The notes below the pieces were generated by a model that had not been told where the DNA came from, did not search any database, and was given only the letters and a program-made list of their open reading frames with translations. Below, piece after piece: positions 10,430-21,321 of a stretch of 64,000 nt of DNA. This DNA comes from Geodermatophilus sp. TF02-6 (GTDB taxonomy: Bacteria; Actinomycetota; Actinomycetes; Mycobacteriales; Geodermatophilaceae). The position numbers and the translations under genes are program-made. Where the stretch lies: positions 1 to 64,000 of the forward strand of contig NZ_QOHF01000008.1 in assembly GCF_003319115.1 (NCBI RefSeq), read 5' to 3'. The number at the start of each line of letters is the position of its first letter. Position 1 is the first letter of the stretch.

Positions 10430-11585
10430 CGGCCGGCCGGGTGGCCGCCCGCGCCAGCGGCAGCGTGAGCAGCAGCGCGCCGGCGAGCAGGACGTAGGTC
10501 CACGGCAGGCCCACCCCGCCCGCGACCGGGCCCGGCGCCAGCGCACCGACCGCGGTACCGGTGTCGAACGCGGCGTTCCACAGGGCGCTGGCCGCGGTCG
10601 CCCCGCCCCCGCCGGCGCGGGCGAGGGCGGTCAGCAGGGTGAGGTTCTGCACCGCGCCGAAGCCGACCCCGAACACCGCCGCCCCGACCAGCACCCAGCC
10701 GCCGCCGACCCGCAGCCCGCCGGCGACGCCGGCCAGCCCGACCGCGCCGACGACGAGGGTCACCGGCAGCAGCAGCCGGGTGCCCATCCGGTCGGCGACC
10801 AGCCCGGCCCGCCAGCGGCTGAGCGCGCCGGTCACCCCGAACACGAGCAGTGCCGCCGTCGCCAGAGCGCCGTCGGGCCGCTCGATGGGCAGGAAGGTCA
10901 CCAGACCGCCGCCGGCGAGGGTGACCACCAGCAGCACCGCCGAGGGGGCGAGCGCGGCCCGCACGGCGGCGCGGGACGACGTCCCCGCCCCGGTCTCCCA
11001 CCGGGTGACCCGGGCCAGCCCGGGGACCAACGGCAGGGCGAGCACCGGCGCGGCGGCCAGCCAGGCCAGCCAGCCGGCGTGCCCGCCGAGCACGAGCGCG
11101 GCCCCGGCCGGGACGGCGACCAGGTTGGGGACGGCGATCGCCAGCCCGTAGAGCCCGATCGACTCCCCGCGGCGCTCCGGCGGGGCGACCTGCGCGGCGA
11201 GCACGACCCCGAGCACGGTCAGCACCGCGAACCCCGCGCCGCGCACCGCCGAGACCGCCGAGAGCCAGGCCAACCCGTCGTCGACGGCGTACAGCGGGGC
11301 GGGCGCCCCGAGGGCGAGCAGGCCGCCGGCGAGCACCGGGCCCAGCCCGAACCGCGCGGTGAGCGCCGGCACGACCGCCTGCACGAGGACGGTGACGAGG
11401 AGGAACACCGCGGTGACCACCCCGGCGGTGTCGACCGCCGCACCGCCCGCGGCCGCGTGGGCCGGCAGCGACGCCAGCGTCAGGCAGTAGCTGGTGAACC
11501 CCAGCGTCGTCGCGCCCACCAGCGCCCGCATCGCCGGCAGCCGCCACAGCGACGTCCGGGCCCGCTCCGTCCCCTCGACCACCAC
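10386..11585 (-). CDS. MFS transporter (drug/sugar efflux-like)
   Basis: About 399 residues from GTG 11585 (GTG 11582 is equally possible); AGGGGAG lies just upstream. Twelve hydrophobic segments and MFS loop motifs are present (ERRGESIGLYGLAIAVPNL in the first half, RAGLVADRMGTRLLLP between TM8 and TM9). It is a plasma-membrane proton-coupled exporter or importer of unknown substrate. Upstream of this start the same frame is open for 70 codons, but that part is low-complexity and lacks a ribosome site. The C-terminus overlaps the convergent 115-aa gene. Confidence 0.85.
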   Translation of the reverse strand: MVVEGTERARTSLWRLPAMRALVGATTLGFTSYCLTLASLPAHAAAGGAAVDTAGVVTAVFLLVTVLVQAVVPALTARFGLGPVLAGGLLALGAPAPLYAVDDGLAWLSAVSAVRGAGFAVLTVLGVVLAAQVAPPERRGESIGLYGLAIAVPNLVAVPAGAALVLGGHAGWLAWLAAAPVLALPLVPGLARVTRWETGAGTSSRAAVRAALAPSAVLLVVTLAGGGLVTFLPIERPDGALATAALLVFGVTGALSRWRAGLVADRMGTRLLLPVTLVVGAVGLAGVAGGLRVGGGWVLVGAAVFGVGFGAVQNLTLLTALARAGGGGATAASALWNAAFDTGTAVGALAPGPVAGGVGLPWTYVLLAGALLLTLPLARAATRPAVNRRSGRRSPAGSG

Positions 11586-13757: not shown

Positions 13758-14603
13758 GTGAAAAGGCTCCCGCTCGCCGTCGCCCTGCTCTGCGCCGCCC
13801 TGTGCGCACTCGCCCCGGCTGCGGGCGCAGCGCCCGGGGACCACGGCGTGCTGCGCCTCGCGCACCTGTCCCCCGACACCCCGGCCGGTGACGTCTACGT
13901 CGACTCGGTGTCCGACCCGAGCATGCACCTGACCTTCCCGGGTGTCGCCTACGGCATGGTGTCCGACTACCAGGACGTGCCGCCCGGCACGTACACGATC
14001 AGCATGCGGTCGCAGGGGGCCGCGCCGGACTCCCCGCCGATCCTGTCGGCCACGGTCGACGTCGCCCCCGGCACCGCCCGCACCGTCGCCGGCCTGGGCT
14101 ACTTCGCCGACCTCGGGCTGAAGGTCCTCGACGACGACCTCACCCTGCCGCCGGCGGGACAGGCCCGGGTGCGCGTGATCAACGCCTCCGCCCACGCACC
14201 GGAGCTCGACGCGAGCCTGGCCGACGGCACCCCGGTCACCTCGGGCCTGCCCTTCGCCACCGCCAGCGACTACGTCGACGTGCCCGGCGGGCCGACCACG
14301 CTCACGGTCACCCCGGCCGGCGGCACCCCGATGCAGCTGCCGGTCGACCTCGCCGCGGGGTCGGTGTACACCGCCCTCGTCCTCGACGACGGGAGCGGGC
14401 TGACGGTGCAGACCACGCTGGACGCCGCCAGCATGGGCGCGGTCCCCGTCGGCGGCGTCGAGACCGGCGCTGGCGGCACCGCCGGCGGGTCGGGCCGGAC
14501 GACGTGGCTCGCGGCCGCGCTCGGGGCAGCGGCCGTGGCGGTCCTGGGGCTGCGCGCCGTCCCGGGGCGGCGGCGGACGCCCCGTCACACCGCCCGGTCC
14601 TGA
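13758..14603 (+). CDS. secreted DUF4397 domain protein with C-terminal membrane anchor
   Basis: 281 residues from GTG 13758, with GAGGAGG 8 nt upstream. A signal peptide (KRLPLAVALLCAALCALAPA, cut after AGA-A) is followed by the DUF4397 region: VLRLAHLSPDTPAGDVYVDS, then PPGTYTISMRS and ARVRVINASAHAPELD, an Ig-like beta fold with two repeats. A Gly/Thr linker, one transmembrane helix (about 250-268) and an Arg-rich tail close the protein. No LPxTG is visible. It is followed 14 nt later by a class F sortase gene, a common pairing in actinobacteria, so the protein is probably part of a surface structure even if not the sortase substrate. Confidence 0.88.
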   Translation: MKRLPLAVALLCAALCALAPAAGAAPGDHGVLRLAHLSPDTPAGDVYVDSVSDPSMHLTFPGVAYGMVSDYQDVPPGTYTISMRSQGAAPDSPPILSATVDVAPGTARTVAGLGYFADLGLKVLDDDLTLPPAGQARVRVINASAHAPELDASLADGTPVTSGLPFATASDYVDVPGGPTTLTVTPAGGTPMQLPVDLAAGSVYTALVLDDGSGLTVQTTLDAASMGAVPVGGVETGAGGTAGGSGRTTWLAAALGAAAVAVLGLRAVPGRRRTPRHTARS

Positions 14604-15230: not shown

Positions 15231-17900
15231 CTACTCCGGCCCGAGCACCGTCAGGGCGGCGGGCCCGCTGCCGAAGACCACCCGGGCCCCGGGTCCCGGC
15301 GCCGGGACGCCGGCGGTGACCGTCCATCCCCTCCCGACCGGTTGCGCCTCCCCCTCGCCGAGGCGCAACCGGTCGGTGGGAACGCCGTCGCGGACCAGGT
15401 CGGCCCACACGGTCACCGGAACGGTCAGGGTCCGGGCCGGCGAGGCCGGGTCGGTGACCCAGGCCGCCAGCTCCCGGTGGGCGGGGTCGGGTGCCCGGGC
15501 CGGCAGGAACAGCGCCCCGACGACCACGAGGACGAGCACCGGCACCGCGAGGGCGGCCCGCACCAGCGGGTGTGGCCGGGAGCCCACCGGCTCCCTCGTG
15601 ACCGCGTGGGTCACCAGCGCACCGAGGACGACCGCCGTGACCACCACCAACGGGAGGACGGAGTCGGCCCCCGGGGTGGGCAGCACGGTGAGGGCCACGA
15701 GCGAGCTCCCGGCGGCGGCCGCCTCCGTCAGCCCCCGTACGGCCAGGGCGCCGACGACGAGCAGGCCGGCGACCAGCGCGACCACCTCCCGCTCGGGACC
15801 GGAGAGCGCCCGGGTGGGGACGTCGAGCAGGGCGGGAGCGGTGAGCGCGGCCAGCTGGGTGGCGCCGAACGCGGCCACGACCAGAGCCGTCCACAGCAGG
15901 AAGGGGTGCGGACGCCGTCCCTCGACCGCCACGACGAGCACGGTCCCGAGCGCCAGCGGGACCGCCGCCAGCGGAGCCGTCCACACCCCGACGAGCAGCG
16001 CGCCCACCCCCGCTCCGACCAGGCAGCAGCGCCGCGCGCGCGACGGCCCTCGTCGATGGCGGCCACGGGAGGTGCCCCCGGCCAGCACGAGGAGGGTGGC
16101 GCCTCCCGCCGCCCAGGCCGCTGCGACTCCGGCCGGGCTCGTCCGCGCCAGCGCGAGCACCGCAGGACCCATCGCGGTCGCCGCCGCGAGCGGCAGGGCC
16201 ACCGCGGACAGCCGCCAGCGGACGACGCGCGCGACCAGCAGGAAGCAGGCCACCAGCACGACGCACGACACCACGGCCAGCTCCCGGCCGCCGAGCAGCA
16301 CGCTCTCGTGCCGGTCGAACGCCCCGGTCGCGCGCGCGTAGCCGACCAACTGGTCCCGCACGGCGCGCTCCCCGGGGGCCACGGGCGGTGCGGCGTCCCG
16401 CCCTCCGTGCAGCACCGCGAAGGCGCTGGCGGTGATCCGGGCCTCGGCGGTCGAGGGCGGCGCCGACGCCGCCACCGCCCCGACCCGCCACACCAGCGCG
16501 CCGGCGAGCCCGCCGACGATCCCCAGGGCCGCGACCCGGCGGACGGTCGTCCACGCGGCCGGGGCGGCCCACTGCCAACCCCAGCGGACTGCCGCCAGCT
16601 GCCGCAGCTGCCCACCGATCAGGCCGGCCATGAGGACGGCGCCCACCCAGGGCAGCACGAGCAGGAAGAGCTGGAACACACCGACCGCACTCGTCACCAC
16701 GTCGCCGGTGCGCAGCGCGGTGTCGAGCGTGCCCAGGTAGCCGAGGAAGGCCCGCCACACCACCGGGAGGACGTGCGGCAGGAGGACGAGGAAGGCGATG
16801 AAGTAGACCAGCAGCGTCGGGACGACCAACGCCACCCAGCCGACGATCACCCGGCGTGCCCAGGGCCGCAGCTCGCGCACCTTCGGGTGGGTCGGGCGCC
16901 CGGGCAGCACGGTGCTCAACGCCGGCCAGACGTAGCCGAACAGTTCTGGCACGCCCACCAGGTCGGCGAGGATGTAGTAGCCGTCCAACCGGATGGCGGG
17001 GATGAACTGCCGCAGGGTCTCACCGAGCATGCCGAACAGCGCGATCAGCAGCCACGGTTGACCCGTGTACAAGTACAGCAGCCCGAGCCCGATCATGAAG
17101 ACGGCGTTGAAGTACACGCCCCCCAGGTCGGTGCGCAGCCGCCCGATCCGGCTCAGCCGGTAGGAGTCGGTGACCGTGCTGTAGAAGGCCGGCCAGACGA
17201 TGTACAGGCCGACGCCCATGTCGCCTGGGCGGGCGCCACCGTAGCGGCAGGCGGTGACGTGCCCGCACTCGTGGAAGGTCCCCGCGGCGATCGTGAGGAC
17301 GTAGATGAGCAGCAGCAGCTCGGGGGCGTGCACGAGCTGCTCCACGCCGGCCAGGGCCTGGCCCAACAGGTCGCCTCGAGCCGCGATCGCGACGAGAACG
17401 GCCACGAAGCCGGCCAGTGCCGTGACCCACACCGGCCGGAGGAAGAACGGACGGAAGACGCCGGCGACGCGCCAGGAGACCACGGCCGGTAGGACGCCGA
17501 CCCGGTAGCGCAGCGCCAGCAACGGGTCGGACCGGACCGAGGGTTCGGCTTCCTCGGGGTCGTCGGCGTCCGCGTCGCCGGCCGCGATGATCCCGACCGG
17601 GCGGAGCCGCTCCTCGACGAGGAAGGACACGTCATCGCCGGTCAGCTCTCGGCCCAGCTCAGCACTCAGGTCAGCGGCGATCTGGCCGGTAGCACGACCG
17701 TCCAGGGAGCCAGCCACCCGGTACAGCAGGCGGGAGAGCTGCATGACCTGGTCGTCGGCGCGGCGGACGAGGTACTTGGGCTCGTGGAGCCCGGAGTCCT
17801 GGTACTCACCGATCAGCTCGGTTCCCGCGGCCAGCAGGTATCTGCGGTGGTCATCCCCGAGCGAGGGCGCCAGGACGTCGCCGTCGACCGCGGTGACCAT
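15231..17900 (-). CDS. PqqD-like domain fused to M50-type intramembrane zinc metalloprotease
   Basis: 889 residues from ATG 17900 with GAGGAGG upstream. Residues about 20-105 look like a PqqD/RiPP-recognition winged helix (YLVRRADDQVMQLSRLLYRV, then ELTGDDVSFLVEERLRPVG). A membrane protease core follows: HECGH at 210-214 supplies the two zinc histidines and the glutamate, and Asp306 in RLDGYYILADL is the likely third ligand. Some six more membrane segments come after, then a long hydrophobic region (540-780) and an extracytoplasmic tail with LAAWVTDPASPARTLTVPV. The family is the putative peptide zinc metalloprotease/YydH-like group, often next to secreted peptides. Upstream on the same strand lies a 71-aa peptide gene, its probable substrate (inference). 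Confidence 0.85.
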   Translation of the reverse strand: MVTAVDGDVLAPSLGDDHRRYLLAAGTELIGEYQDSGLHEPKYLVRRADDQVMQLSRLLYRVAGSLDGRATGQIAADLSAELGRELTGDDVSFLVEERLRPVGIIAAGDADADDPEEAEPSVRSDPLLALRYRVGVLPAVVSWRVAGVFRPFFLRPVWVTALAGFVAVLVAIAARGDLLGQALAGVEQLVHAPELLLLIYVLTIAAGTFHECGHVTACRYGGARPGDMGVGLYIVWPAFYSTVTDSYRLSRIGRLRTDLGGVYFNAVFMIGLGLLYLYTGQPWLLIALFGMLGETLRQFIPAIRLDGYYILADLVGVPELFGYVWPALSTVLPGRPTHPKVRELRPWARRVIVGWVALVVPTLLVYFIAFLVLLPHVLPVVWRAFLGYLGTLDTALRTGDVVTSAVGVFQLFLLVLPWVGAVLMAGLIGGQLRQLAAVRWGWQWAAPAAWTTVRRVAALGIVGGLAGALVWRVGAVAASAPPSTAEARITASAFAVLHGGRDAAPPVAPGERAVRDQLVGYARATGAFDRHESVLLGGRELAVVSCVVLVACFLLVARVVRWRLSAVALPLAAATAMGPAVLALARTSPAGVAAAWAAGGATLLVLAGGTSRGRHRRGPSRARRCCLVGAGVGALLVGVWTAPLAAVPLALGTVLVVAVEGRRPHPFLLWTALVVAAFGATQLAALTAPALLDVPTRALSGPEREVVALVAGLLVVGALAVRGLTEAAAAGSSLVALTVLPTPGADSVLPLVVVTAVVLGALVTHAVTREPVGSRPHPLVRAALAVPVLVLVVVGALFLPARAPDPAHRELAAWVTDPASPARTLTVPVTVWADLVRDGVPTDRLRLGEGEAQPVGRGWTVTAGVPAPGPGARVVFGSGPAALTVLGPE

Positions 17901-17943
17901 CGGGGGAGATCCTCCTCGTGCGCTCGACGGCCTGGCGACGTGC

Positions 17944-17975
17944 GGGAGGGGCGGCCGGACCCGGCCGCCCCTCCC
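17944..17975 (-). terminator. 15-bp perfect GC hairpin between peptide gene and protease gene
   Basis: GGGAGGGGCGGCCGG (17944-17958) pairs perfectly with 17961-17975 across a minimal loop. It lies in the 126-nt gap after the peptide stop and before the protease ribosome site, so it is well placed as a partial terminator or mRNA stabiliser, giving more peptide than protease. Confidence 0.65.
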
Positions 17976-18026
17976 CGGACATCACGGCTGCTGAGGGGTC
18001 AGGTCAGCAACCCATCAACCCGTCGG

Positions 18027-18242
18027 TCAGGAGCCGGCAACGGCAACGGCGGTGGCGTCACCGGTGTTCACCTGGGTGACGTCGCTGTTGTTCCCGGTGT
18101 TGGCGAACTGGACGATGGCGGCGATCGCGGTGGCCGTGTTCCGCCGCCGGCCACCACCACCGCCGCCGTTACCGCCGCCGCCATTCATCGTCGTCATGGT
18201 GGTCCGAGCCGGCAGCAGCTCGACCGTCTCGTTCTCGAACAT
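18027..18242 (-). CDS. 71-aa precursor-like peptide with Gly hinge and NTGD tail
   Basis: ATG 18242 is preceded by AGGAGG at 4 nt spacing, one of the best ribosome sites in the window. The N-terminus MFENETVELLPARTTM looks like a recognition leader (acidic, then LPxR). Residues 20-34 form a flexible hinge: a run of Gly, one Asn, six Gly, three Arg. The tail (about 36-71) is small-residue rich with AIVQFANTGNNSDVTQVNTG and DATAVAVAGS, alternating hydrophobic and Asn/Thr/Asp residues as in beta-solenoid or amyloid-like repeats. There is no classical signal peptide and no Cys. It is followed by the PqqD-like/M50 protease and faces a LAL regulator. A secreted or processed peptide is my inference; I cannot name a family. 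Confidence 0.75.
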   Translation of the reverse strand: MFENETVELLPARTTMTTMNGGGGNGGGGGGRRRNTATAIAAIVQFANTGNNSDVTQVNTGDATAVAVAGS

Positions 18243-18375
18243 GTTTCCTCCTGTAGACACTCGGGGACGCGCGAGGAAATCCAGGGAGACGCCCGAAAAG
18301 CGGCACGGTGCATTTCCGTGTCCCATTTCTCGAATGCCGGCTCCCCGCCGATCACATGTCGATGTCGGCCATCTC

Positions 18376-18404
18376 ATCCTGAACGTGGCGCCGATCACTG
18401 ACAA
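18376..18404 (-). promoter_or_regulatory. candidate promoter of the peptide gene
   Basis: On the minus strand TTGTCA (18404-18399), a 17-nt spacer and CAGGAT (18381-18376) resemble a housekeeping promoter, leaving a leader of roughly 125 nt. Further upstream (18405-18597) lie TTAACCC twice, ACCACGTA twice, and AACGAGTTCGT, a near palindrome; these are candidate sites for the divergent regulator. No gene is seen in 18405-18597. Confidence 0.35.
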
Positions 18405-18597
18405 TGCCGAATCCCACGTAGCGCCAATTGCACGACACGTCAGTTAACCCGCGCTTAACCCGGACGGGGAGGGTCGGACCACGTAGCTGCGGCGCCGCAC
18501 CACGTACCACGCACGGTGAAGTAACGAGTTCGTCACGTGATAACCGGTCGTACCCGTTGGACTTGTCCCGACCCCGTGGGGGCTCGATGCTGTCGGT

Positions 18598-21321
18598 GTG
18601 CACGGCGCATCCGCGGCAGGGCCGCCGCAGGAGTCCGGGCGTCCTCCGAGGCGAGGACCGCGGACCCCGGGCCCCACTCCCCCGACAGACGAGCCGGCCG
18701 CGCGAGGCACCGTCCCGGGCTGCGGCGCCTGGCCGTTCATCGACCGCGAAGGTGAGCTCGAGGCGGTGCTGGCGACCGTCGGGGGCACGGAGGCCGCGTC
18801 GGTGGTCGTGTCGGGTCAGCCCGGAGCCGGCAGGACCCGACTGGCCCAGGAGGTGAAGCGCGAGCTGACCGCCCGGGGCCGGCGCGTGGAGTGGATCACC
18901 TGCACCCGCGCGATCTCCGCGATCCCGCTCGGCACCTTCGCCCACCTCGTACCGACCGTCGGTGCCGGCGCGGACCTCGCCGCCGCCTGGCAGGCCCTGG
19001 TGTCGACCCTGGGCGCCGACCGGGAGGACGGCCCCGCGGTCGTGGTCGTCGACGACGCCCACCTGCTCAACGACCTGTGCGCCGCGCTCGCGCACAAGCT
19101 CGTCTCCACCCGGACGGCCGGCGTCGTGCTGACCGTGTCCGACGCCGTCCCCGCGCCGGATCCGGTCGACGCGCTGTGGAAGGACGGCCTCGCCGCCCGG
19201 ATCGACCTGGCCGCGCTGACCCGCCAGCACGTCGAGCGGATGCTCGAGGCGGCGCTCGGTGACCTGGTGGACAGCCGGACCTGCGAGAGCCTGTGGCGCA
19301 CCAGCCGGGGCAGCGCCGTCCTGCTGCGTGAGCTCGTGGCCGACGCCCGCACGACCGGCCACCTCGACCAGGCCGGCGGGCTCTGGCGCTGGGACGGCGT
19401 GGTGGCCCTGACGCAGCGGTTGCGGTCGGTGGTGCGGGCGCAGCTGGGCGGGCTCTCCCCGGCCGAGCGGGAGGCGATGGAACTGCTGGCCGTCGGCGTG
19501 CCGCTCGAGCTCGCCGACCTCGTCACGCTCACCTCGGCGGAGGTCGTCGCGTCCCTCGAGCGACGCGGGCTGGTCCTCGTGGAGCAGGTGTCCCCGCGTC
19601 CCGTCGCGATCGTGGCCCACCCGCTGCACGCGCAGGTGCTGCGAGCCGAGCTGCCCCGGGCCGCGGCCGACGCGTTCCGCCGCCGGCTGGCGAGCGCCTC
19701 CTCGGTGCAGCGGTGGCTGCGCGAGGACCCGGTGCGGGTGAGCGCCCTGCTGCTCGACGCCGACGGTCCTCGGCCAGGGCACGGCGTGTTGACCCGTGCC
19801 GCGGCGCAGGCCAACGGGCGCTTCGACCACGACCTGGCCGAACGGCTGGCCCGCTCGGCGCTGGCACGTGGGCCGGACGTCGCCGCGTGCACCGCCCTGG
19901 CCGAGTCGCTGCGCTGGCAGGGACGGCATCCCGAGGCCGAGCAGGTGGCCGGGCAGGCCGCGGCGCTGCCCGTCCCCGGTCCGGCGCGGGAGGCCCTGGC
20001 GGTCACCCGGGTGCTCAACCTCTGCTACGGCCTGGGCCGGGTGGACGACGCCCTGGCGCTGACCGCGGAGGACCCCGGCGACGTCGTCCGGGCGGTGGGG
20101 GTCGTGCTGGGCCTGTCGGCCGGTGCCCCCCTGCGCTCCGCAGACCTGGAGCTGGAGCGGCTCGCCGGGGGCTCCGACGACCCGCGGGTCCTCGTGTGGG
20201 CCGGCGTCGCCCGCACCACCGGGCTCGCCCTGCTCGGCTCCGTCCCCGAGGCCCTGGTCAGTGCCACCGCGGGGTGGACGGCGCTGGCCGCGAGCGACAC
20301 CGCGACCGAGTCCTCCGCCGCGTGCGCCGCGCTGGCCTTCGGCGAGCTCATGGCGCTCGAGCTCTCCGGTCGGCTCAAGCAGCACGAAGCCAAGATGGAC
20401 GAGTTGCACGAGCTGGCGATGGCCCGGGCCCCGTCGGCGCTGGACGGGGTCGCCGCGCTCGGCCTCGGCTGCGGACTGCTGGCGGCCGGTCGGCCGGTGG
20501 AGGCCGTCGGCTGGCTGACCGAGGCGGCGGCCACGCTCGTGCACAGCGACCCGGTCGGATTGCTGCGGCTGTGCCGGGCGCGGCAGGCACAGGCACACGC
20601 CCTGCTCGGCGACCCGACCCGGGCCCAGTCGGCGCTGACAGCTGCCCGCGCGCCCTCCCCGGTGCGGGTCTTCGACCCCGAGGTCCTGCTCGCCGCGTCC
20701 TGGCTGGCCGCCGCCGAACACCGCGCGGACGACGCCGGCAACAAGGCCGTCGCCGCGGCCTCCCTCGCCGCCCGACTCGGGCAGCGACCGGTGGAGGCCA
20801 GGGCCCTGCACACGGCCGCCCGCCTCGGCCGGACGGGGAAGATCATCGACCGGCTGCACGAGCTCAGCGACGAGCTGGGCGACCGGCTGCTGCGCGCCTT
20901 CGCCGCCCAGGCCGAAGCGGCCGCCTCCGGCTCCGGGGAGGGGCTCGACGAGGTGGCCAGCGAGTTCGCCGAGCTGGGCGCGCAGGGTCTGGCCGCCGAC
21001 GCCTCCGCCCAGGCCGCCGAGGCCCACCGGGACGCCGGCCACCGCCGGCAGGCCTCGGCCTCGGCGGCGTGCGCGAACTCGCTCGCCCGCTCCGGCGGCG
21101 GGATCCGCACCCCCGCGCTGGACGGGATCGTGTCCTACGAGCTCACCGAGCGCGAACGCGAGGTCGCCACGCTGGCCGCCCAGGGAGTGAAGAACCAGGA
21201 GATCGCCCGGCGGCTGGTCCTGTCGGTGCGCACGGTCGAGACCCACCTCGGGCGGGTCTACGACAAGCTCGGCATCTCCGGCCGCGGCGCGCTGCGGGAC
21301 GCGCTGATCACCCAGCAGTAG
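18598..21321 (+). CDS. LAL-type LuxR family ATP-binding transcriptional regulator
   Basis: 907 residues from GTG 18598 (start uncertain; the first 45 residues are low-complexity). A STAND/AAA ATPase module begins with [14 protein letters not shown], then a Walker A GQPGAGRT in which the usual Lys is Arg, and Walker [13 protein letters not shown] long helical TPR-like middle (about 330-830) follows. The C-terminal HTH reads [20 protein letters not shown], then [20 protein letters not shown] proteins activate gene clusters after binding an inducer; this one is divergent from the peptide/M50 genes, so it is the obvious candidate to control them. The Walker Arg may weaken ATP hydrolysis. Confidence 0.88.

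What the first reader, a model, noticed from the sequence alone, without database searches (positions are those of the whole stretch)
15231..21321. Possible peptide system: precursor-like 71-aa peptide, PqqD-like/M50 protease, divergent LAL regulator
The sequence shows a 71-aa ORF with a strong ribosome site, an acidic leader ending LPxR, a Gly hinge with three Arg, and a patterned Asn/Thr/Asp tail (NTGNNSD, NTGDA). Next on the strand is a protein with an N-terminal PqqD-like winged helix (the fold that binds RiPP leaders) joined to an HECGH intramembrane protease. A LAL regulator is divergent. This is the layout expected of a leader-guided, membrane-processed peptide, but no tailoring enzyme is present and the tail has no Cys. 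A secreted structural or signalling peptide cut by the protease fits, and I know of no described system with this exact set.
Basis: partly seen in the sequence, partly recalled or inferred. Interest (0 to 1): 0.8.

Follow-up and report, generated by a model that had tools for sequence, protein, structure and literature searches.

The report
Leader-guided secreted peptides with membrane protease
An actinobacterium carries a small peptide gene beside a membrane protease that probably cuts it free, one of a widespread set of such pairs, and in close relatives a second enzyme that caps the newly exposed end points to where the cut falls.

Summary
The 71-aa peptide has paralogues in its own genome and relatives across Actinomycetota, beside homologues of the same PqqD-like/M50 protease. 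Of 112 such protease loci, 102 have a short ORF within 6.5 kb whose leader carries LPx[RK]xx[M/L/I/V]. ORFs of up to 130 aa within 2.5 kb match in 150 of 279 cases; those beyond 6 kb in 1 of 106.

Eight loci of the window's genus point to the cut site: they also encode a glutaminyl cyclase, fused to the protease or separate. All 27 precursors there have Gln directly after LPxRTT[M/L]; in the 104 loci without cyclase no credible precursor does. All 8 cyclase genes found in the family lie inside these clusters. So cleavage is inferred at TT[M/L]|X, with pyroglutamate formed outside the cell; the window copy (TTM|T) is an unmodified sister. The association rests on two or three evolutionary changes only.

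The protease type is known from daptides, whose tailoring genes were not found beside the window copy. No Pfam or NCBIfam model hit nine precursors tested. Function is unproven; a surface peptide is my best guess.

The parts
18027..18242 (-). precursor peptide gene, 71 aa
   Evidence: homologues
18195..18242 (-). leader MFENETVELLPARTTM (16 codons); cut predicted after Met16
   Evidence: LPx[RK]xx[MLIV] leader beside 102 of 112 protease loci; cut inferred from the Gln/glutaminyl cyclase association in sister loci
18030..18194 (-). predicted mature peptide, 55 aa, Gly/Asn/Thr-rich, Thr at its N terminus, no Cys
18247..18252 (-). ribosome site AGGAGG
   Evidence: read from sequence
17944..17975 (-). 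stem-loop (14 bp perfect stem, 4-nt loop) between peptide and protease genes; attenuator-like
   Evidence: a perfect stem of 10-20 bp in 17 of 17 loci examined; window z -4.3 against dinucleotide shuffles
15231..17900 (-). M50 (site-2) intramembrane protease, 889 aa
   Evidence: (NF041824 daptide_HExxH 101 bits, under its cut-off of 300); no Pfam hit at E<=1
17586..17843 (-). N-terminal PqqD-like (RRE-like) domain, about residues 20-105 of the protease
   Evidence: weak to moderate
17259..17273 (-). HECGH zinc-protease motif (residues 210-214)
   Evidence: H210, E211, H214 invariant in 33 of 33
18598..21321 (+). divergent LAL-type LuxR regulator (start may be 18766)
   Evidence: a homologue lies in 17 of the 18 loci with protease score above 460 bits
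11791..13701 (+). membrane protein whose C-terminal domain resembles the C-terminal part of related M50 proteases (ORF may begin at 11494); possible accessory gene
   Evidence: no Pfam hit
13758..14603 (+). DUF4397 protein with a sorting-signal-like C terminus (by eye); possible accessory gene
   Evidence: its homologue overlaps the end of the protease gene by 4 bases in Pseudonocardia nigra L162
14618..15217 (+). class F sortase; possible accessory gene (ORF may begin at 14504)
   Evidence: (197 bits, cut-off 166); homologue next in the P. nigra gene string

Best explanation
A leader-guided peptide maturation system. The precursor is made in the cytoplasm with a 16-residue leader whose ELLPARTTM part is read by the N-terminal PqqD-like domain of the membrane protease. 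The M50 active site cuts after TTM and the remaining 55 residues leave the cell, by the protease itself or by an unknown route. In sister systems the cut exposes Gln, which a glutaminyl cyclase outside the membrane turns into pyroglutamate; the window copy exposes Thr and skips that step. The stem-loop after the peptide gene probably keeps peptide expression above protease expression, and the LAL regulator controls the unit. The product is most likely a self-associating surface peptide, possibly linked to the neighbouring sortase and DUF4397 genes. Shown here: the gene pairing, the leader conservation, the Gln/cyclase association, the stem-loop. Inferred: leader binding, cut, export, pyroglutamate, surface role. 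The confidence given is for leader-guided cutting by the neighbouring protease; the cut exactly after TTM about 0.7; the surface role about 0.5.
For: Peptide-protease pairing in 102 of 112 loci and its neighbourhood control (ORFs up to 130 aa 150 of 279 within 2.5 kb, 1 of 106 beyond 6 kb; 23 of 5580 shuffled; all ORFs under 350 aa 173 of 532 and 5 of 313). Leader positions not forced by the search: M/L/I/V at +6 in 171 of 175 and Glu at -2 in 136 of 175. Gln after the leader in 27 of 27 precursors of the 8 loci with cyclase. All 8 cyclase genes found in 112 family genomes lie in these clusters. In L031 the cyclase domain (residues 824-1054) follows the last predicted membrane span (790-808); L033 and L037 have the same fusion; in L032, L034, L035, L036, L098 the cyclase is a separate gene with a lipoprotein-like N terminus by eye. 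Among three Geodermatophilus genomes the 16 leader codons show 8 synonymous and 2 non-synonymous differences over nine pairwise comparisons, the cores 80 and 74. Stem-loop in 17 of 17. In P. nigra one gene string holds precursor, protease, DUF4397, sortase and LAL.
Against: No biochemical evidence. The Gln/cyclase association rests on few evolutionary events: three changes on the protease tree, two of them forced by well-supported branches; only 2 independent pairs are testable, p 0.5; Fisher p 4.1e-5 treats loci as independent. One Gln match in a locus without cyclase (L183, 232 aa) was judged not to be a precursor from its sequence alone. 10 of 112 loci have no pattern match; five show a likely uncalled precursor in six frames and L136 a variant one (LPDKEVAS), four show none. 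The PqqD-like assignment is weak. Sortase and DUF4397 homologues were found in only one other locus. The surface role rests on composition alone; nine peptides tested have no Pfam hit to curlin or any other family.
Confidence: 0.78

Rival explanations
1. It is a RiPP antibiotic or bacteriocin pathway of daptide or epipeptide type: the peptide is a membrane-active toxin released by the protease.
For: The protease family is shared with daptides and epipeptides (NF041824 and NF058609 hits); daptides showed activity in hemolysis assays (PMC10036551 abstract) and the epipeptide is antimicrobial (PMC10885120 passages).
Against: Six further genes around the window locus gave only MFS, DUF488, aldehyde dehydrogenase and proline dehydrogenase in Pfam. 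In the other branch loci the neighbours were read by eye only, and no daptide or epimerase set was recognised. Cores are Gly/Asn/Ala/Thr-rich, one to five different copies per locus.
Confidence: 0.2
2. The peptide is a signal: the protease releases it and the LAL regulator, or a receptor, senses it.
For: A LAL regulator lies in 17 of 18 loci of this branch.
Against: LAL regulators as known sense cytoplasmic ligands (recalled). Outside the branch only 6 of 94 loci have a LAL gene above 400 bits (some contigs are short and a distant LAL could be missed). Several different peptides per locus fit a signal poorly.
Confidence: 0.15
3. The leader is cut elsewhere (for example after LPxR) and the Gln is only an inherited residue unconnected to the cyclase.
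For: Few independent evolutionary changes. Two other genomes of the phylum sample, G103 and G191, have both a related protease and a cyclase, but far apart, so the cyclase family also has other uses.
Against: L098 has a different leader (LPERTTM), different cores and a separate cyclase, yet Gln at the same place; in the family no cyclase was found outside these clusters; cyclases act on N-terminal Gln or Glu (established knowledge).
Confidence: 0.12

Closest known systems
Daptides (MpaA / MpaP, RRE fused to site-2 protease; PMC10036551, abstract and passages read)
   Same: Short precursors with a conserved acidic leader (ELExMEAP there) beside an intramembrane site-2 protease with an N-terminal leader-binding domain; the NCBIfam daptide protease model aligns over residues 43-370.
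   Different: Leader motif differs (ExLPxRxxM); no C-terminal Thr in 42 branch precursors; the tailoring genes were not found beside the window copy; model score 101 against a cut-off of 300.
Epipeptides (EpeX / EpeP, YydF / YydH; PMC10885120, passages read)
   Same: M50 protease thought to cut and export the peptide.
   Different: No epimerase gene seen near the window; the family model matches the M50 part only (39 bits, cut-off 225).
Bacteroidetes Q-rule (PMC10653852, abstract read; PMC5837995, start of abstract in the listing)
   Same: Processing exposes an N-terminal Gln that a membrane-associated glutaminyl cyclase converts to pyroglutamate (compare the sister loci, not the window copy).
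   Different: There the cut is by signal peptidase I on most Sec substrates; here, as inferred, by a dedicated M50 protease on a few leader peptides, in Actinomycetota.

Membership tests
Daptide | precursor with C-terminal Thr | tested here: not met
   window peptide ends AGS; 0 of 42 branch precursors end in Thr
Daptide | oxidative decarboxylase, aminotransferase and methyltransferase genes nearby | tested here: not met
   window: none among the genes from about 10.1 to 24.6 kb scanned with Pfam (an aldehyde dehydrogenase pairs with a proline dehydrogenase). Other branch loci read by eye only; L103 has one methyltransferase-like gene beside its protease
Daptide | RRE domain fused to site-2 protease | tested here: inconclusive
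   NF041824 aligns over residues 43-370 but below its cut-off; PqqD-like by hhalign at 71% probability
Epipeptide | radical SAM epimerase gene beside the precursor | tested here: not met
   window neighbours from about 10.1 to 24.6 kb
RiPP (general) | leader recognised by a maturation protein and removed | tested here: inconclusive
   pairing and leader conservation; no binding or cleavage assay
RiPP (general) | post-translational modification other than leader removal | tested here: not met
   no tailoring gene found beside the window copy; 8 sister loci have a cyclase
Q-rule type pyroglutamate formation | Gln at the new N terminus with a glutaminyl cyclase | tested here: not met
   window copy has Thr and no cyclase in its locus; the sequence pattern is met in 8 sister loci
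Intramembrane site-2 protease (M50) | HExxH and downstream Asp motif within membrane spans | tested here: met
   HECGH and LDGYY, with H210, E211, H214, D306 invariant in 33 of 33; hydrophobic spans. Pfam M50 itself matches only 11 of 33, weakly, and not the window protein

The most novel reading that the evidence does not exclude
A phylum-wide class of peptides released to the cell surface by a protease that reads the leader, cuts in the membrane and lets the product out, with no signal peptide; one branch has fused the protease to a glutaminyl cyclase, giving an actinobacterial 'Q-rule' that works without signal peptidase, and the products assemble as a surface coat tied to a sortase.
Probability: 0.4. 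Interest if true: 0.85.

Novelty: new variant of a known kind. Interest (0 to 1): 0.72.

Why it matters
It gives a likely protease, a likely cut site and, in one branch, a likely modification to many short actinobacterial proteins; none of nine tested hit a Pfam or NCBIfam model at E<=1. The cyclase fusion makes the cut site of such a protease directly testable, and also whether the protease exports its product, which the review passage gives only as what is thought for EpeP.

Tried and rejected
Structure prediction of the protease: tool switched off, not tried again; profile comparisons used instead. A common regulatory motif between LAL and peptide: only ribosome-site and GC-rich words and a few shared words came out; the TTAACC pair upstream of the window peptide is in none of the other 10 regions scanned. 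Leader LPART as a sortase signal: rejected, since relatives have LPERAVL, LPDREAM and LPDKEVI at the same place and the motif lies near the N-terminal end. Curlin or another repeat family for the cores: no Pfam hit. Cyclase fusions elsewhere in the phylum: 28 of 396 genomes have a cyclase; the only frame over 700 aa besides L031's (L266) has no HExxH. The hairpin alignment A5 was poor and was not used. Comparing the 735-aa neighbour with the window's own protease gave only a short weak match. The 165 pattern matches in loci without cyclase include some ORFs that are plainly not precursors.

Full report
What is there. The 71-aa ORF at 18027-18242 (-) has a clear ribosome site (AGGAGG, 18247-18252) and reads MFENETVELLPARTTM followed by a Gly-rich stretch, three Arg and an Asn/Thr/Asp tail. 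Downstream on the same strand lies the 889-aa protein 15231-17900 with HECGH and a later LDGYY motif. Upstream and divergent is a LAL regulator (AAA_16 and GerE).

Relatives of the peptide. In its own genome the peptide finds three paralogues on another contig, next to a second LAL gene and a second protease of the same kind. A leader-only search found a further site (C14), which proved to be a third complete system (L098). In the genus 8 of 26 genomes, the window's own included, match at E<=0.001. Reading the loci of this branch shows one to five short genes per cluster with the leader [MV]FE[DN]QxV[ED]LLPARTT[ML] or variants of it.

Relatives of the protease. A profile of about 330 N-terminal residues found a match at E<=1e-10 in 26 of 112 genomes of the family and 37 of 396 sampled over the phylum. 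25 of the 396 have a match of 230 bits or more; the weaker ones may be other M50 proteases. In the order 36 of 249 sampled genomes match at E<=1e-80. A scan of named genomes found 222 relatives and kept 79 loci, from Geodermatophilus, Modestobacter, Blastococcus, Pseudonocardia, Streptomyces, Actinomadura, Solirubrobacter and others, and MAGs labelled Thermoleophilia or Chloroflexi among them.

The leader motif. Of 128 loci, 13 duplicates and 3 without a called protease were dropped. Of the 112 left, 102 have at least one ORF under 350 aa within 6.5 kb with LPx[RK]xx[MLIV] in its first 70 residues; 83 of 112 have one of up to 130 aa within 2.5 kb. Within 2.5 kb, 150 of 279 ORFs of up to 130 aa match; beyond 6 kb, 1 of 106; in shuffled sequences, 23 of 5580. 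For all ORFs under 350 aa the figures are 173 of 532 near and 5 of 313 far. Searching only for LPx[RK] and leaving later positions free, position +6 is M, L, I or V in 171 of 175 and position -2 is Glu in 136 of 175. Forms differ by branch: LPARTTM here, LPARTV[ML]S in Pseudonocardiales MAGs, LPERTVMG in Streptomyces, LPERAVLS in Actinomadura, LPERAAMS or LPDREAMS in Thermoleophilia-type MAGs and Solirubrobacter, LPDKEVIS in a second system of the window's family. Of the ten misses, a six-frame look showed a plausible uncalled precursor in five (L124, L127, L129, L145, L153), L136 has a variant (LPDKEVAS), and L105, L122, L130, L189 show none. No Pfam or NCBIfam model hit any of the nine precursors tested against both libraries at E<=1.

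Where the cut falls. In eight loci, all in the window's genus, a glutaminyl cyclase is present (PF05096, 297 bits in L031): as the C-terminal domain of the protease in L031, L033, L037, and as a separate gene in L032, L034, L035, L036, L098, whose N termini look like lipoprotein signals by eye. All 27 precursors of these eight loci have Gln right after LP[AE]RTT[ML]. In the 104 loci without it (94 with a match) the 165 matches have Ser 118, Gly 22, Thr 10, Lys 6, Leu 3, Asp 2, Ala 2, Val 1 and Gln 1; that one Gln is in a 232-aa protein of L183 that does not look like a precursor. In the family PF05096 is found in 7 of 112 genomes at E<=1e-5, and all 8 genes lie in these clusters. Two other genomes of the phylum sample (G103, G191) have a related protease and a cyclase far apart, so the rule concerns clusters, not genomes. 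Within the branch, 8 loci with and 9 without cyclase give Fisher p 4.1e-5, but this ignores kinship. On a 79-row protease tree the cyclase needs three changes, two forced by well-supported branches; Gln follows it in all 75 rows that could be scored, with only two independent pairs testable, p 0.5. I read this as good mechanistic but statistically limited evidence that the cut is between M/L and the next residue. A cyclase acts on an N-terminal Gln or Glu (established knowledge). Behind the last predicted span in L031 (hydropathy), or as a lipoprotein, it should sit outside the membrane, so the product should end up outside. The window copy has TTM|T and no cyclase: it is an unmodified sister.

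The protease's leader-binding domain. Support for PqqD is weak to moderate: Pfam 1 of 33, best PDB match 3g2b at E 0.02 with unrelated chains at 0.024 and above, hhalign probability 71% and score 28.7 against 16.0 for the best of 30 shuffled controls. The daptide protease model spans residues 43-370.

Other parts. Between peptide and protease lies a perfect hairpin (17944-17975). Perfect stems of 10-20 bp occur there in 17 of 17 loci examined (16 of the 18 branch loci and L162), with z from -2.5 to -5.8 against 60 dinucleotide shuffles each, and a stem of 10 bp or more in 24 of 52 other loci with a suitable gap. I take it as an attenuator that keeps peptide above protease. A LAL gene lies in 17 of the 18 loci above 460 bits, divergent in 12 and downstream on the same strand in 5; the eighteenth (L140) is a 3.2-kb contig. 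In Pseudonocardia nigra (L162) precursor, protease, DUF4397 protein, class F-like sortase and LAL form one gene string, the DUF4397 gene overlapping the protease gene by 4 bases. The window has the same DUF4397-sortase pair next to the protease, convergent with it, and a membrane protein whose C-terminal domain resembles that of related proteases. This hints at a cell-wall function, on two loci only.

Comparison with the known. Daptides (PMC10036551; abstract and passages) are made with an RRE fused to a site-2 protease and a leader motif ELExMEAP, and are cut after ELExxxxx (PMC12338566, a preprint; passages). The machinery here is of that kind, but 0 of 42 branch precursors end in Thr and the tailoring genes were not found beside the window copy, so it is not filed as a daptide. 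The cyclase branch resembles the Bacteroidetes Q-rule (PMC10653852, abstract) with another protease and other substrates. None of ten paper searches turned up this family or an RRE-protease linked to a cyclase; I read listings, two abstracts and passages of three papers, and the library lacks most subscription papers.

Verdict. A new variant of a known kind: well supported as a leader-protease pair, with an inferred cut site and an unproven product function.

Noticed in passing
L032, L034, L035, L036, L098, L099, L100, L101, L103, L104, L106: In these 11 loci the cluster sits at one place, between genes that look like nusB (after efp, aroQ, aroB) and bldD followed by pyrR, pyrB, pyrC (gene names recalled from sequence). 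The window copy and the L031 copy lie elsewhere.
   Followed up: partly
L107-L117, L131-L134, L137, L214: A second, distinct system: an M50 protease of about 725-890 aa preceded by a 210-335-aa protein with leader LP[DNAT]KEV[ILVM]S and an Ala/Asn/Asp repeat tail.
   Followed up: no
L170-L216 (Streptomyces and Actinomadura loci): Many precursors have two recurring Cys in the tail (ACQ ... TCVPA or similar), suggesting a disulfide; often two different precursors per locus. In the window's branch 7 of 42 cores hold a Cys.
   Followed up: no
L031-L037, L098-L101, L103, L106: A small Cys-containing, lipoprotein-like gene (about 80-150 aa, SVTLxGxGS motif) lies near 13 of 17 branch loci by tblastn, absent from the window, L038, L104, L105; no Pfam hit for the L098 copy.
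   Followed up: partly
L031:13370-15706 and L033:8778-11156: An Hsp70-like protein near the cluster; the L031 copy has Hsp70 and beta-propeller domains, the L033 copy is judged by eye. Function unknown.
   Followed up: no
L033:7520-8230 and L037:7260-8282: Long precursors of the same leader family with a long Pro/Val/Ala/Glu-rich repeat.
   Followed up: no
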